From contig NZ_VFOW01000001.1 of assembly GCF_006716355.1 (NCBI RefSeq), forward strand, positions 4,526,001 to 4,590,000: a stretch of DNA of 64,000 nucleotides, read 5' to 3'. This document shows, piece after piece, positions 37,782-43,131 of this stretch; positions within the stretch are counted from its first letter, which is position 1, and every line of letters starts with the position of its first letter. A model generated the notes under the pieces. That model was not told the DNA's origin. It saw only the letters and a program-made list of their open reading frames with translations, and searched no databases. The position numbers were made by a program, and so were the translations under genes. The DNA is from Stackebrandtia endophytica. GTDB taxonomy: Bacteria > Actinomycetota > Actinomycetes > Mycobacteriales > Micromonosporaceae.

Positions 37782-38948
37782 ATGACGATGCCAGCATTGA
37801 ACCTCAGCCCGGCCAAGGCCAACCGGAGCATGCCTCCGCGCCACTTGGCCGACCTCACCCTTGCCCAGCGCCGTGAGGCGGTCGTTGAGTTGGGGGAACC
37901 TGCGTTTCGCGCCAACCAACTGTCGCACCACTACTTCGCCAGGCAGGTCACCGACGTGACCGCGATGACCGACCTACCCGCGGCCTTGCGCGACCGGTTC
38001 GCCGACGCGCTGTTTCCGCGACTGTTGACCCCGGTGAAAGAAGCCGACTGCGACAACGGCGCGACCCGGAAAACCTTGTGGCGGTTGCATGACGGGTCGC
38101 TGGTCGAAAGTGTCCTCATGGGATACCCCGACCGGGCGACGGTGTGCGTCTCCTCACAAGCCGGGTGTGGTATGGCGTGTCCGTTTTGTGCCACTGGGCA
38201 GGCCGGACTGACACGTAACATGTCTACTGCCGAGATCGTTGAACAGATCGTAAGCGCCGCGAGGTCGTCGGAAGAGGCAGACCTGGGCCGGTTGTCCCAC
38301 GTCGTGTTCATGGGCATGGGAGAGCCGCTCGCGAACTACTCCAGGGTGGTTGCGGCGCTGCGCCGGATCACGTCACCGGCACCCGAAGGGCTCGGCCTGT
38401 CCGCTCGACACATCACCGTGTCGACCGTGGGTTTGGTTCCGGCCATTCGGAGGTTGACGGACGAGGATCTGTCGGTGACGCTGGCAGTGTCCCTGCATGC
38501 TCCCGACGATGAGCTGCGGGATGAACTGGTACCGATTAACAACCGTTGGAAGGTCGCCGAAGTGCTTGACGCCGCGTGGCATTATGCGAAGCGCACCAGG
38601 CGACGTGTCTCCATCGAGTACGCGATGATTCGAGACGTGAACGACCAGCCGTGGCGCGCGGATCTGTTGGGGCGGTTGCTGAAGGGAAAACTGGCGCACG
38701 TCAATCTGATCCCGCTGAACCCGACTCCGGGCAGCCGGTGGGACGCCAGCCCCAAACCGGTCGAACGCGAGTTCGTGGCTCGGCTGCGTGACGCTGGTAT
38801 TCCCACCACGGTTCGGGATACGCGTGGCCAGGAGATTGACGGTGCCTGTGGACAACTGGCGGCATCGCAACAGCTTGCCGAGCCTCAGGGCGGGACGGAG
38901 GAATTGGCCCATGCTCAGCGGGGCGAATCACGGAAGGTGGCTTTGTAG
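37782..38948 (+). CDS. rlmN: Dual-specificity 23S rRNA/tRNA adenine-C2 methyltransferase RlmN
   Basis: 388 aa radical-SAM enzyme. [11 protein letters not shown] supplies the CX3CX2C cluster ligands C129, C133 and C136. [49 protein letters not shown] and the C-terminal [13 protein letters not shown] with the methyl-carrying cysteine are present. It methylates A2503 and tRNA A37. ATG 37782 or 37788 can serve. The TAG overlaps the GTG of the next gene. Confidence 0.95.
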
Positions 38949-41005
38949 TGGCCAATCATGGTGATCGGTTTAGACGACGGGCACTGAGTCGTGGTTACAA
39001 GGCCGACGAGGTCGATGCGTTCCTCGACCGGGTCGAGGCGACCCTGGCCGGCGAACCCATGGGGTCACCGGTGCCGTCTCAAGAGGTCGACGACGTCGTT
39101 TTCCGCGTTCGATTCGGGGGCTACGACGAGTGGCAGGTCGACGTCTACCTGGACCGGGTCGCTCGTCAACTCAGCGAACTGGAGGAGCGCGGCGTGTTGG
39201 GCCGCGCGCCGTCACCGGAGTTCGTGAACGGACCTCGGAACGACGACGCCGGTCGTGACGATCCTCGGGACATGGGGCCGTCCCGCGACATGTCTCACCG
39301 CGATCCGCGTGACATGCCACCTCATGACATGCCTCCCCGCGACATGTCTCACCGCGATCCGCGTGACATGCCACCTCATGACATGCCACCTCACGACATG
39401 CCTCCCCGCGATATGCCGCCGCGTGACATGCGTGAGGCGCCGATGGGGCGGGAGATGTCTCCACCGCCACCTCGGGAACGACACGGCATGCACGCCGAGC
39501 CGTCCACTCCGCCTCCGCCGTCCCGCCGTGGTGAGCCGCCGCGTGGCCGCAACGAGCGGGCACCCATCGAGGACGACGGTGAAGGCTTCGGCCACCTGCG
39601 TGCCGACGACGGCGAGGGCTTCGGGCATCTGGCCGGTGGTCCCGATGACGACGACCCGTTCGGTGGTCGTCCGACCCGTCGGCACCACACGCCACCGAGC
39701 GGTTTCGACCGTCGCGGTGACGACCGTCCCGACCGTTTCGACGGCCCACCGATGGGCGGTCCGCCGGACCGGTTCGACGGCCCCCCCATGGGCGGGCCTC
39801 CGGGACCTCCGGATCGTTTCGATGGTCCGCCTCCCGGTCGTTTCGACGGCCCTCCGGATCGTTTTGAGCACGGTGGCCCGGGTGGCTTCGATGGTCCGGG
39901 GCATCCCGGTGGCCAGTTCGAGCCGGCCGGTCCCGGTGGGCCGGGTGGCCCCGGCGGTCCCGGCGGCTTTGACGGCCCCGGTCACCCCGGTGGTGGTTTC
40001 GAGCCCGGCGGCCCCGGTGCCTTCGAACCCGGTGGTCCGGGAGGACACCCGGGTGGCTTCGACGGTCCGGGGCATCCCGGTGGCCAGTTCGAGCTGGCCG
40101 GTCCCGGTGGGCCGGGTGGACCCGGTGGCTTCGAGTCGGCCGGTCCACCACAGGATCGGTTCGCTCCCCAGCAGGAGCGTCGGTTCATGCCGGAGCCGGA
40201 GTCGTTCCCGCCCAGTGGTCCGCCCCCGTGGGGCGCCGACCCGGGGCCCGGTTTCGACCGCCCCGACAACCAGATGCCGCCTCAGCAGCACGGTTTCGAC
40301 GACGAGATGACCCGCCCGCTGCGGCGACACGAGGAGCCGGCCGAGTCCGACACCCAGATGACCCAGCGGCTTCGCCGTGGGCCGGAGGACCGGTTCGGTC
40401 CGCCGCCGCCACGCGAGCCGGGCGGACCGGGCGGACCTCATCACGGCGGCGAACCCACTCCACCGCGCGGGATGCCGAGCGACCCGACCACGGTGATCCC
40501 GCATCCTGCGGGTCCGCCGCCGCAGGGTGGTCCCGGCGGGCGTCCACCGTCGCCGTACGACGCGCCCGGCGGATACCGGGATGCCGGTCCAGCGGGCCCG
40601 CCTCCGACGGAGCCGGGAGGCGCGAAGGTCGACTACGGTCGTCGCAACCCTTATGAGGGTCGCGGCGTCTTCGACGGACCCGGGCGTCACGGACGCGAGG
40701 AGATGACCACGGAGCTGCGTTCGGCCGACTCGCCGTTCAAGCCCGAGGACCTTCAGCGGCTTGAGCAACTGCGCGGTGCGTTCCAGCCGCGACGGTTCGG
40801 CAGCGGCTACGATCCGGCGCAGGTCGACCGGATCTTCGATGCGATGTCGTCCAACATGACCGGTCGATCGCCGGTTCCGGTCAGTGACAAGGAGTTGGAC
40901 ACCAGCCAGTTCAGTCTGGTGCAGCGTGGTTATTTCGAGGCCGAGGTCGACGCGGCGTTGCGCGAGGTGCGTGACATCTTCGCCAAACGTGGCATGGTTC
41001 GGTAA
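38948..41005 (+). CDS. Large DivIVA-domain repeat protein
   Basis: 685 aa. Short DivIVA-like modules flank a disordered centre: two at the N-terminus (ALSRGYKADEVDAFLDRVEATL and FGGYDEWQVDVYLDRVARQL, residues about 12-80) and two at the C-terminus (GSGYDPAQVDRIFDAM and LVQRGYFEAEVDAALREV, about 615-680). Between them lie DMPPHDMPPRDM-type repeats (about 110-160) and FDGPGHPGGQFEPAGPGG-type repeats (about 255-400). DivIVA relatives sense curved membrane and organise polar growth. The gene overlaps rlmN by one base and ends in a perfect hairpin. Confidence 0.8.
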   Translation: MANHGDRFRRRALSRGYKADEVDAFLDRVEATLAGEPMGSPVPSQEVDDVVFRVRFGGYDEWQVDVYLDRVARQLSELEERGVLGRAPSPEFVNGPRNDDAGRDDPRDMGPSRDMSHRDPRDMPPHDMPPRDMSHRDPRDMPPHDMPPHDMPPRDMPPRDMREAPMGREMSPPPPRERHGMHAEPSTPPPPSRRGEPPRGRNERAPIEDDGEGFGHLRADDGEGFGHLAGGPDDDDPFGGRPTRRHHTPPSGFDRRGDDRPDRFDGPPMGGPPDRFDGPPMGGPPGPPDRFDGPPPGRFDGPPDRFEHGGPGGFDGPGHPGGQFEPAGPGGPGGPGGPGGFDGPGHPGGGFEPGGPGAFEPGGPGGHPGGFDGPGHPGGQFELAGPGGPGGPGGFESAGPPQDRFAPQQERRFMPEPESFPPSGPPPWGADPGPGFDRPDNQMPPQQHGFDDEMTRPLRRHEEPAESDTQMTQRLRRGPEDRFGPPPPREPGGPGGPHHGGEPTPPRGMPSDPTTVIPHPAGPPPQGGPGGRPPSPYDAPGGYRDAGPAGPPPTEPGGAKVDYGRRNPYEGRGVFDGPGRHGREEMTTELRSADSPFKPEDLQRLEQLRGAFQPRRFGSGYDPAQVDRIFDAMSSNMTGRSPVPVSDKELDTSQFSLVQRGYFEAEVDAALREVRDIFAKRGMVR
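39282..39387 (+). repeat. 52-bp tandem direct repeat inside the DivIVA-type gene
   Basis: Bases 39282-39333 recur exactly at 39336-39387, an offset of 54 nt or 18 codons. They encode PRDMSHRDPRDMPPHDM twice; shorter DMPP units follow to 39432. Confidence 0.85.
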
Positions 41006-41022
41006 CCACCGCTACGACGAGA

Positions 41023-41058
41023 ATCGGGCCGCCGACAGGAAACTGTCGGCGGCCCGAT
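41023..41058 (+). terminator. Perfect 16-bp hairpin with GAAA loop
   Basis: 41023-41038 pairs fully with 41043-41058 around a GAAA tetraloop, 18 nt after the DivIVA-type stop. It can also serve the convergent DUF2631 gene. Confidence 0.8.
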
Positions 41059-41095: not shown

Positions 41096-41320
41096 TCAGT
41101 CGCGTAGTCCGTTGCGGACCAACACCCAGTCGGTGATCAACGCCAACGCGATCACGATCGCGAAGCCTCCCAGCCACAGGCTCTCCACGCGGCCTTCGTG
41201 GTTTCCGTACAGGTAGGCCACCATGGTGACGATCGCGGCGATACCCACGGTGTAGGTGAGCTTGCGATTGGTGGGCTTGCGTTGGTCCGGAGAGGTCACC
41301 GGTTCATCATGGCCTGCCAC
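41096..41320 (-). CDS. DUF2631 small membrane protein
   Basis: 74 aa. AGHDEPVTSPDQRKPTNRKL is followed by two transmembrane helices (TYTVGIAAIVTMVAYLYG and LWLGGFAIVIALALITDWVL). It matches the small actinobacterial DUF2631 family found near rlmN and dxr. GTG 41320 has AGGA 8 nt upstream. The function is unknown. Confidence 0.82.
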   Translation of the reverse strand: MAGHDEPVTSPDQRKPTNRKLTYTVGIAAIVTMVAYLYGNHEGRVESLWLGGFAIVIALALITDWVLVRNGLRD

Positions 41321-41443
41321 TGTCGTCCTAACCTTTCGAGCGGTTGATCGATATGGGCTCACCGCTAGTCTCCCATGGGCCTGCGGTAGTTTCGTCCCGA
41401 CCTGGGATCAACCGTGGACAGCGGTAAGGTCGATCGCCGGGCG

Positions 41444-41519: not shown

Positions 41520-43076
41520 GTGGCTGACGTGCGGATCACAGGTTGCGGACATGCGAGCATGTTCATCGAGACGGCGGCGGGCAGCATTCTGTGCGACCCG
41601 TGGGTGAACCCCGCCTACTTCGCCTCGTGGTTCCCCTTCCCGGACAACTCCGGTCTCGACTGGAAGACCCTGGGGCAGTGCGACTATCTGTACGTCTCGC
41701 ACCTGCACCGCGATCACTTCGATGAGGACAATCTCCGCGACAACATCTCCAAGGACACCACGGTCCTGTTGCCGGAGTATCCGACCAGCGAGTTGGAGGA
41801 CGAGCTACGGGCGCTCGGGTTCCACAAGTTCATTCGCACCGTGTCCGGGGAGATCACGGAGCTTCCCGGCGGTGTCAAGGTGATGATCCAGGCGCTGACG
41901 TCCCCGACCGACGGACCGATCGGTGACTCCTCGATCTGGGTTGAGGACGCCGACGGGGTGCGGATGCTCAACCAGAACGACGCCCGTCCGACCGACCTGT
42001 CGGAGTTCACCAAGCTCGGCCAGATCCACGCTCACCTTCTGCAGTTCTCCGGCGCGATCTGGTATCCGATGGTGTACCAGCTGCCCGAGGCGGCCAAGCG
42101 CGCCTTCGGTAAGCAGAAGCGGGATCGGCAGTTCGACCGGTCCCTGCGGTACATCGACGATGCGAAGGCCTCCCACGTCTTTCCGATCGCGGGACCGCCC
42201 TGCTTCCTTGACGACTCGTTGTGGCAGTTCAACGACATCTTCGGCGACGAGGGCAACATCTTTCCCGACCAGCAGGTGTACGCCGATTACCTGGCCGAGA
42301 ACGGGCGCGACAACAACGTGACGTTGCTGCCGGGGACGGTTGCCGAGGTCACCGTGGACGGTTGCCGGGTCACCCACCCGGTCTCAGACGTGCGTGAGTT
42401 CTTCGCGAACAAGGAGCAGTACCTACGTGAGTACCAGGAGCGGCAACGCCCAGTCATCGAGGCGGCCAAGCGATCCTGGGAGCACCCCGAGATCAACGTC
42501 CTCGCCGAGCTGAGGCGACGTTTCGAGCCGTTGCTCCCGGAGGCGGAGTTCATCGCGGCCGGAATCGGCGGGCCGGTGCGGTTCGACCTGACCGCGGCCG
42601 ACTCCGACGAGGTCGTCGAGAGCATCGTGTTCGACTTCGGAGAGCGGGAGATCCGTCCCTACGACGGTGAGAAGTGTCGGTACCGGTTCACGACCGAGCG
42701 GCGCCTCATCGAACACCTGTTGCACATCGAGGAGATCGACTGGGTGAACTCACTGTTCCTGTCCTGCCGCTTCTCGGCGGCTCGAATCGGGCAGTACAAC
42801 GAGTTCGTCTACACGTTCTTCAAGTGTCTGTCGGAGGAGCGGCTCAACTACGCCGAGGGCTGGTACGCCGAGCAGAAGCCCGACGAGGAGAACATCTCGC
42901 TGGCCGGTTGGACCGTCCAACGTCGATGCCCCCATCTCAAAGCGGACCTGTCGAGGTTCGGCAAGGTCGAGGACGGGGTGCTGACCTGTCAGATGCACGG
43001 TTGGAAGTGGAACCTGGACTCGGGCAAGTGCCTGACCAGCGTGGGCCATGACATCCGTGCCGAGCGCGGCGAGTAG
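41520..43076 (+). CDS. Metallo-beta-lactamase-fold hydrolase fused to a C-terminal Rieske [2Fe-2S] domain
   Basis: 518 aa. The MBL domain (about residues 1-260) has GCGHASMFIETAAGSILCDPW and the metal motif H61-x-H63-x-D65-H66 (SHLHRDHFD). A middle region of about 200 residues is unassigned. The C-terminal Rieske motif is C470-P-H472 then 17 residues then C490-Q-M-H493, close to canonical CxH-x15-17-CxxH. CMP-sialic-acid hydroxylase combines the same two domains in the opposite order. The start is GTG 41520, with GTG 41529 an alternative. It is a likely soluble redox enzyme; the substrate is unknown. Confidence 0.85.
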   Translation: MADVRITGCGHASMFIETAAGSILCDPWVNPAYFASWFPFPDNSGLDWKTLGQCDYLYVSHLHRDHFDEDNLRDNISKDTTVLLPEYPTSELEDELRALGFHKFIRTVSGEITELPGGVKVMIQALTSPTDGPIGDSSIWVEDADGVRMLNQNDARPTDLSEFTKLGQIHAHLLQFSGAIWYPMVYQLPEAAKRAFGKQKRDRQFDRSLRYIDDAKASHVFPIAGPPCFLDDSLWQFNDIFGDEGNIFPDQQVYADYLAENGRDNNVTLLPGTVAEVTVDGCRVTHPVSDVREFFANKEQYLREYQERQRPVIEAAKRSWEHPEINVLAELRRRFEPLLPEAEFIAAGIGGPVRFDLTAADSDEVVESIVFDFGEREIRPYDGEKCRYRFTTERRLIEHLLHIEEIDWVNSLFLSCRFSAARIGQYNEFVYTFFKCLSEERLNYAEGWYAEQKPDEENISLAGWTVQRRCPHLKADLSRFGKVEDGVLTCQMHGWKWNLDSGKCLTSVGHDIRAERGE

Positions 43077-43091
43077 ACCGACGACGATCAT

Positions 43092-43131
43092 CATCGAACG
43101 GCCGCACCGGATCCGGTGCGGCCGTTCGATG
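43092..43131 (+). terminator. 40-bp perfect palindrome after the MBL-Rieske gene
   Basis: All 40 bases are self-complementary about the centre 43111/43112. As RNA it forms an 18-bp stem with a minimal loop, 15 nt past the stop codon. Confidence 0.75.

What the first reader, a model, noticed from the sequence alone, without database searches (positions are those of the whole stretch)
41520..43076. MBL-fold hydrolase with C-terminal Rieske domain
HxHxDH of the MBL fold and CxH-x17-CxxH of a Rieske domain lie in one polypeptide, in the order opposite to CMP-sialic-acid hydroxylase. No oxygenase catalytic domain follows, so electrons may go directly to the MBL metal centre. A dyad upstream and a 40-bp palindrome downstream mark it as a separate unit.
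Basis: partly seen in the sequence, partly recalled or inferred. Interest (0 to 1): 0.6.

Follow-up and report, generated by a model that had tools for sequence, protein, structure and literature searches.

The report
Muramic acid hydroxylase NamH, known enzyme
The gene encodes NamH, a known cell-wall enzyme that adds one oxygen atom to a sugar building block of bacterial peptidoglycan; the two-domain arrangement is real but already described, so the finding is ordinary, with open questions about its iron chemistry and its spread.

Summary
In detail: window 41520-43076 (+) is one 518-aa gene with HLHRDH of a metallo-beta-lactamase (MBL) fold at residues 61-66 and a Rieske motif CPH-x17-CQMH at 470-493. 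Rv3818 is namH, the hydroxylase for N-glycolylmuramic acid, and its 'N-terminal UlaG and C-terminal Rieske' layout is in print (PMC10050696, passages). Nearest relatives are Stackebrandtia (up to 91% identity); S. nassauensis and Glycomyces walls contain N-glycolylmuramic acid (PMC3035245, passage). It is therefore very probably NamH, an oxygenase rather than a hydrolase. The comparison with CMP-sialic-acid hydroxylase was apt. In 43 of 43 aligned relatives the MBL site keeps HxHxDH and an Asp, but no two further invariant histidines exist, which argues against a two-metal hydrolase and for an iron centre fed by the Rieske cluster. The flanking palindromes are terminator-like hairpins. Side result: NamH-type genes also occur in some Streptomyces and on Ktedonobacteria-titled contigs. 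Verdict: already known; low interest.

The parts
41520..43076 (+). namH: muramic acid (UDP-MurNAc) hydroxylase, 518 aa
41532..41747 (+). N-terminal MBL (Pfam Lactamase_B_3 match, residues 5-76); by fold comparison the MBL domain runs to about residue 280-290
   Evidence: VIA-align model ranges ending at 277-290 for the best 13 rows
41700..41717 (+). HLHRDH metal motif (residues 61-66); H61, H63, D65, H66 invariant in 43 of 43 aligned
41979..41981 (+). D154, aligned by hhalign with the Asp of the AGDS motif of an MBL paralogue; invariant in 43 of 43
42498..42872 (+). PF25451 SCP2_Rv3818 domain (residues 327-451)
42927..42998 (+). Rieske [2Fe-2S] motif CPH-x17-CQMH (residues 470-493)
43092..43131 (.). 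40-bp perfect palindrome behind the gene, terminator-like hairpin (z -7.6), no T run behind it in the sequence
41096..41362 (-). divergent upstream neighbour, DUF2631 protein (88 aa); not part of the system

Best explanation
The gene is namH. Its product hydroxylates the methyl group of the N-acetyl of a UDP-linked muramic acid with O2, giving the N-glycolyl form for peptidoglycan. Shown here: the gene, its three domains, its full-length kinship with named Nocardia, Rhodococcus and Tsukamurella proteins, and its membership of a Pfam family named after Rv3818. From the literature: Rv3818 and its M. smegmatis counterpart are NamH, responsible for N-glycolylation, using molecular oxygen. Inferred: an external reductase feeds the C-terminal Rieske [2Fe-2S] cluster, which passes electrons to a non-heme iron centre in the MBL domain (H61, H63, D154, perhaps with D65, H66, D131), where O2 is activated; the SCP2-like domain helps to bind substrate or to hold the Rieske domain near that site.
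For: PF25451 'Rv3818-like' at 173.2 bits against a cut-off of 28.2. Matches of 48-51% identity over 99% of the query in five named Nocardia, Tsukamurella and Rhodococcus records, of 12 plasmid records matched. Rv3818 = NamH with N-terminal UlaG and C-terminal Rieske domains, non-essential (PMC10050696, passages; also PMC3605390, passages); [quoted passage not shown] Host type fits: nearest relatives are Stackebrandtia, Phytomonospora and Glycomyces; S. nassauensis murein contains N-glycolylmuramic acid, as in Glycomyces (PMC3035245, passage); a namH homologue in Stackebrandtia was already reported (PMC6194230, passages). One copy in the window's genome. Lowest Foldseek E-values for the model are FrsH and CmlA, MBL-fold diiron oxygenases (1.4e-11, 5.4e-11), and FrsH is the best PDB profile match (9e-9). 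HxHxDH, D154 and the Rieske C, H, C, H are invariant in 43 of 43 aligned relatives.
Against: No activity was measured. The sequences of Rv3818 or MSMEG_6412 themselves were not fetched; the link runs through the Pfam model and named relatives of other genera. The pathway step is not settled in print: PMC3605390 (passages) notes Lipid II as a proposed substrate and, from a MurF interaction, favours UDP-MurNAc-pentapeptide. The fold alone does not favour an oxygenase: hydrolase-like MBLs follow FrsH and CmlA closely by Foldseek (3x2z 6.0e-11, NAPE-PLD 8.5e-11) and lead by Z (3rpc 21.7, 6brm 20.6, NAPE-PLD 20.4; CmlA 18.4, FrsH 17.9). Metal and ligands are inferred; H11 is His in 40 of 43 and could be a further ligand; a HMMER alignment with FrsH pairs Q152, not D154, with the first of two Asp. 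No redox partner kept across clades was seen among the neighbours named.
Confidence: 0.95

Rival explanations
1. An MBL-fold hydrolase with a regulatory or structural Rieske domain, as database names such as 'MBL fold metallo-hydrolase' suggest.
For: HxHxDH present; hydrolase folds rank highest by Z and close behind by Foldseek; 3 of the 5 full-length plasmid relatives are named 'MBL fold metallo-hydrolase'.
Against: The only invariant His in 43 relatives are H61, H63, H66 and the two of the Rieske motif; H11 is His in 40 of 43. In hhalign the fourth-ligand His of MBL paralogue L130 falls on P133, two residues past D131 (78% probability); after strand 219-223 NamH reads AGPPCF, where L130 has a His (this place lies outside the hhalign match and was judged by eye). 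Genetics in mycobacteria gives a hydroxylase.
Confidence: 0.03
2. A NamH paralogue that hydroxylates the N-acetyl group of another sugar nucleotide or natural product in this organism.
For: Substrate cannot be read from sequence; the window protein is only about 50% identical to the Nocardia and Rhodococcus relatives.
Against: Single copy in the genome, in a neighbourhood shared with Stackebrandtia, Glycomyces and some Micromonosporaceae loci; S. nassauensis and Glycomyces walls carry MurNGlyc, and no second such gene was found in the genome to make it.
Confidence: 0.02

Closest known systems
NamH (Rv3818 of M. tuberculosis, namH of M. smegmatis)
   Same: Same plan as far as tested: MBL/UlaG first, PF25451 in the middle, Rieske last.
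   Different: About 50% identical to the Nocardia/Rhodococcus members; the Rhodococcus ruber plasmid copy has other neighbours.
CMP-N-acetylneuraminic acid hydroxylase (CMAH)
   Same: Hydroxylates the N-acetyl methyl of a nucleotide sugar; Rieske plus MBL fold; called a distant homologue of the bacterial genes (PMC6481270, passage).
   Different: Rieske domain is N-terminal in CMAH (6-112 in pig); animal enzyme; fed by cytochrome b5. CMAH's sequence was not compared here.
CmlA / FrsH, MBL-fold diiron beta-hydroxylases
   Same: MBL fold used for O2 activation; lowest Foldseek E-values and best profile match.
   Different: Only the MBL part matches; the Glu of FrsH aligned near the ligand place (recalled as E377 in CmlA) falls on S128, which is S, A or G in 43 of 43.
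UlaG / UPF0173 / NAPE-PLD hydrolases
   Same: MBL fold, HxHxDH.
   Different: They have further His ligands (recalled; seen in paralogue L130); NamH has no further invariant His in the MBL domain.

Membership tests
NamH (muramic acid hydroxylase) | N-terminal MBL/UlaG domain | tested here: met
NamH (muramic acid hydroxylase) | central Rv3818-type SCP2-like domain PF25451 | tested here: met
   173.2 bits vs cut-off 28.2
NamH (muramic acid hydroxylase) | C-terminal Rieske domain with 2 Cys and 2 His | tested here: met
   invariant in 43 of 43
NamH (muramic acid hydroxylase) | full-length collinearity with relatives in genera reported to have namH (Nocardia, Rhodococcus; PMC10234563) | tested here: met
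   Nocardia 50.9%, Rhodococcus 50.6%, Tsukamurella 50.8%, 99% coverage
NamH (muramic acid hydroxylase) | direct sequence comparison with Rv3818 or MSMEG_6412 | not tested
   no named mycobacterial record was retrieved; the f2 genomes are unnamed
NamH (muramic acid hydroxylase) | host wall contains N-glycolylmuramic acid | tested here: inconclusive
   stated for Stackebrandtia nassauensis and Glycomyces (PMC3035245); the window's own strain is unnamed
NamH (muramic acid hydroxylase) | hydroxylase activity on a UDP-MurNAc precursor | not testable with these tools
   needs enzymology
CMAH | N-terminal Rieske domain followed by MBL domain | tested here: not met
   here MBL is about 1-290 and Rieske 466-505; CMAH order from PMC9219854
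Dinuclear MBL hydrolase | HxHxDH plus two further His and a bridging Asp (ligand set recalled) | tested here: not met
   D154 fits the Asp, but wherever one aligns them two further conserved His do not exist: outside HxHxDH and the Rieske pair only H11 is near-invariant (40 of 43)
CmlA-type diiron oxygenase | MBL-fold diiron site with a Glu ligand | tested here: inconclusive
   MBL fold matches; no conserved Glu at the aligned place; D131 nearby is invariant
Classical Rieske oxygenase alpha subunit | N-terminal Rieske followed by its own catalytic domain | tested here: not met
   Rieske is C-terminal, its Pfam match ending 13 residues before the end of the protein; no further domain in the Pfam scan

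The most novel reading that the evidence does not exclude
NamH shows that an MBL fold stripped of its hydrolytic histidines can serve as the catalytic half of a Rieske-type oxygenase: a two-His-one-Asp iron site (H61, H63, D154) replaces the usual catalytic domain, and the enzyme does CMAH's chemistry with the domains in reversed order. The gene also reaches some Streptomyces and Ktedonobacteria, predicting N-glycolylated peptidoglycan where it is not expected.
Probability: 0.45. Interest if true: 0.45.

Novelty: already known. Interest (0 to 1): 0.15.

Why it matters
It removes a candidate novelty: the gene has a known function that its usual record names (MBL fold metallo-hydrolase, Rieske 2Fe-2S domain-containing protein) hide. 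If the active-site reading is right, NamH would be a tractable bacterial model for how CMAH-type enzymes oxidise an unactivated acetyl methyl group; a 2016 review says no CMAH structure had been reported (PMC4819959, passages).

Tried and rejected
Read as a new hydrolase-Rieske fusion: rejected on PF25451 and the NamH literature. Electron donor from the neighbourhood: in 81 loci compared (80 plus the window; crude ORF calling whose main cluster recovered the NamH gene itself in 72 of 81, flanks of unequal length) the most widespread neighbours belong to the Glycomycetaceae/Micromonosporaceae block, and those of Streptomyces, Chloroflexota-titled and Acidimicrobiia-type contigs differ. Mobile origin: no match in 50,697 phage records. 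Flanking DNA: aligned with three Stackebrandtia-type loci it is poorly conserved (mean column identity 56% and 58%) and the letters of the downstream palindrome are not kept; whether those relatives have hairpins of other sequence was not scanned. Distance between the two metal centres: not measured. No CMAH chain appeared among the PDB rows shown; that is not proof of absence. Searches for N-glycolyl muramic acid with Ktedonobacter gave one paper (listing only) and, with Chloroflexi or Acidimicrobi, 1,023 papers of which 8 were listed, none of the 8 holding 'N-glycolylmuramic' (listing only).

Rows dropped: alignment A1 holds the window and 42 of the 80 loci (the rest left out by my choice, mostly near-duplicates or fragments). 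The tree was made from 114 sequences thinned to 57 at 88% identity; L001, L002, L009, L027, L094 and L109 were left out before, L030 and L072 fell out because my Rieske pattern allowed too short a spacing (both have the motif), L121 and L122 because no ORF with both motifs was found in the stretch held.

Full report
What is there. The ORF at 41520-43076 (+) encodes 518 residues. Pfam gives three domains in order: Lactamase_B_3 (5-76, 25.6 bits, cut-off 24), PF25451 'Rv3818-like, SCP2-like domain' (327-451, 173.2 bits, cut-off 28.2) and Rieske (466-505, 37.3 bits, cut-off 20.3). Of four NCBIfam models listed none reaches its cut-off. The gene is under clear purifying selection: against Stackebrandtia albiflava, 35, 28 and 169 differences at codon positions 1, 2 and 3 over 515 codons.

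What it is. Rv3818 is namH. [quoted passage not shown] smegmatis (PMC10050696, passages read). A 2023 review states that NamH N-glycolylates UDP-MurNAc using molecular oxygen, that it can be deleted from M. smegmatis and M. tuberculosis, and that Nocardia and Rhodococcus have namH (PMC10234563, passages). An earlier paper leaves the pathway step open between UDP-MurNAc-peptides and Lipid II (PMC3605390, passages). A 2018 review finds namH homologues in Stackebrandtia, Micromonospora and Salinispora, and also in Catenulispora acidiphila and Rubrobacter radiotolerans (PMC6194230, passages). The original report, Raymond et al. 2005, is not held and is known to me through citations only.

Kinship. 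A scan of GTDB genomes kept 80 loci of 83 confirmed, led by Stackebrandtia-titled records (83-91%), Actinorhabdospora and Phytomonospora (84%, 83%), Glycomyces (78-80%), Longispora (77%) and Micromonospora (74%). Of 12 plasmid records with a match, five in Nocardia, Tsukamurella and Rhodococcus are full-length at 48-51% identity, one Microbacterium match is split over three annotated genes, and six in haloarchaea cover only the N-terminal part at 23-27%. A tree of 57 sequences places the window with S. albiflava (100/98 support), within a Glycomycetaceae-Micromonosporaceae group of 11 rows (100/99); a Rhodococcus-containing group of 11 rows is separate (100/100). S. [quoted passage not shown]

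Distribution. PF25451 is found in 38 of 396 genomes of the phylum, 135 of 298 of the order, 5 of 39 of the class of G053, and 0 of 14 control genomes. In the genus of G023, which is Streptomyces since a locus of it is identical over 3,351 bases to S. himastatinicus, 7 of 295 genomes match, six strongly and one weakly (2.0e-9). Five of these seven were fetched and carry both motifs in one ORF, as do the named Streptomyces loci. Several loci carry titles of Ktedonobacterales or Ktedonobacteraceae; two in the same tree group are titled Proteobacteria, which I take for mis-binning. One paper states that Streptomyces walls have N-acetylmuramic acid (PMC10913483, passage) and a review lists Streptomyces among bacteria without namH (PMC10234563, passage), so the Streptomyces cases are a testable oddity. 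I did not see them discussed in what I looked at (listings, passages), which is a weak statement.

How it probably works. From the literature: O2-dependent hydroxylation of the acetyl methyl. Inferred: the Rieske cluster relays electrons to iron in the MBL domain. The structure model is confident (mean pLDDT 90.0, pTM 0.86, 43 sequences). The MBL domain (about 1-290) matches UlaG/NAPE-PLD-like folds and the diiron oxygenases CmlA and FrsH. FrsH and CmlA have the lowest Foldseek E-values but only just; hydrolase-like folds lead by Z; so the fold alone does not decide. The site is more telling: in 43 of 43 relatives H61, H63, D65, H66, D131, D136, D154 and D231 are invariant, but no other His is apart from the two Rieske ligands; H11 is His in 40 and Gln in 3. 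hhalign (78% probability) puts D154 on the Asp of the AGDS motif of MBL paralogue L130 and that paralogue's fourth-ligand His on P133, two residues past D131; the last MBL His falls outside that match, and by eye the place reads AGPPCF. HMMER with FrsH pairs Q152 rather than D154 with the first of two Asp, so the exact ligand is not settled. A site left with H61, H63 and D154 recalls the two-His-one-carboxylate site of Rieske oxygenases (recalled); a diiron site using D65, H66 and D131 is equally open. The role of the SCP2-like domain is unknown.

Relation to CMAH. A review calls CMAH a distant homologue of the bacterial genes (PMC6481270, passage). CMAH's sequence was not compared here. The protein works like CMAH but by domain order is not a CMAH.

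Surroundings. In the window the gene sits between a block with a CdsA-type cytidylyltransferase, RlmN, a DivIVA-like protein and a divergent DUF2631 gene, and a downstream block with an unnamed 219-aa protein, TetR, MMPL and a formyltransferase (pyrH, frr and dxr farther out are recognised by me from the translations, not by a family search). Clusters that hold these window genes recur: MMPL in 28, TetR in 26, CdsA in 25 and RlmN in 23 of 81 loci. The perfect palindromes at 41023-41058 and 43092-43131 fold as strong hairpins (z -7.9 and -7.6) and look like terminators.

Verdict. A known enzyme in a host group known to carry its product. Interest is low; what remains open is the metal site, the electron donor, and the outlying Streptomyces and Ktedonobacteria-titled copies.

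Noticed in passing
L074-L084, L095, L106, L110, L124-L128: Full-length NamH-like genes in a minority of Streptomyces (7 of 295 sampled genomes by PF25451, one of them weak), a genus described as having N-acetylmuramic acid walls.
   Followed up: partly
L085-L092, L094: NamH-like genes on contigs titled Ktedonobacterales, Ktedonobacteraceae or Chloroflexi; two of these loci (L087, L091) are titled Proteobacteria, probably mis-binned.
   Followed up: partly
L096, L097, L100: Contigs titled Bifidobacterium breve carry NamH genes; L096 (the others were thinned out) groups in the tree with Acidimicrobiia-type sequences, so the titles are probably wrong.
   Followed up: no
NZ_CP072877.1 449479-451011 (hit H6): A Microbacterium plasmid match is split over three annotated genes (MBL, hypothetical, Rieske), so the gene looks broken there or wrongly annotated.
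   Followed up: no
window 38948-41005: DivIVA-like protein (685 aa) with a long Pro/Gly-rich repeated middle.
   Followed up: no
window protein residue C504 (window 43029-43031): A Cys behind the Rieske motif is invariant in 43 of 43 relatives with no assigned role.
   Followed up: no
G000:C1 (loci L114-L118): The window's genome has five Rieske matches over the Pfam cut-off, this gene being one; the other four were not identified.
   Followed up: no
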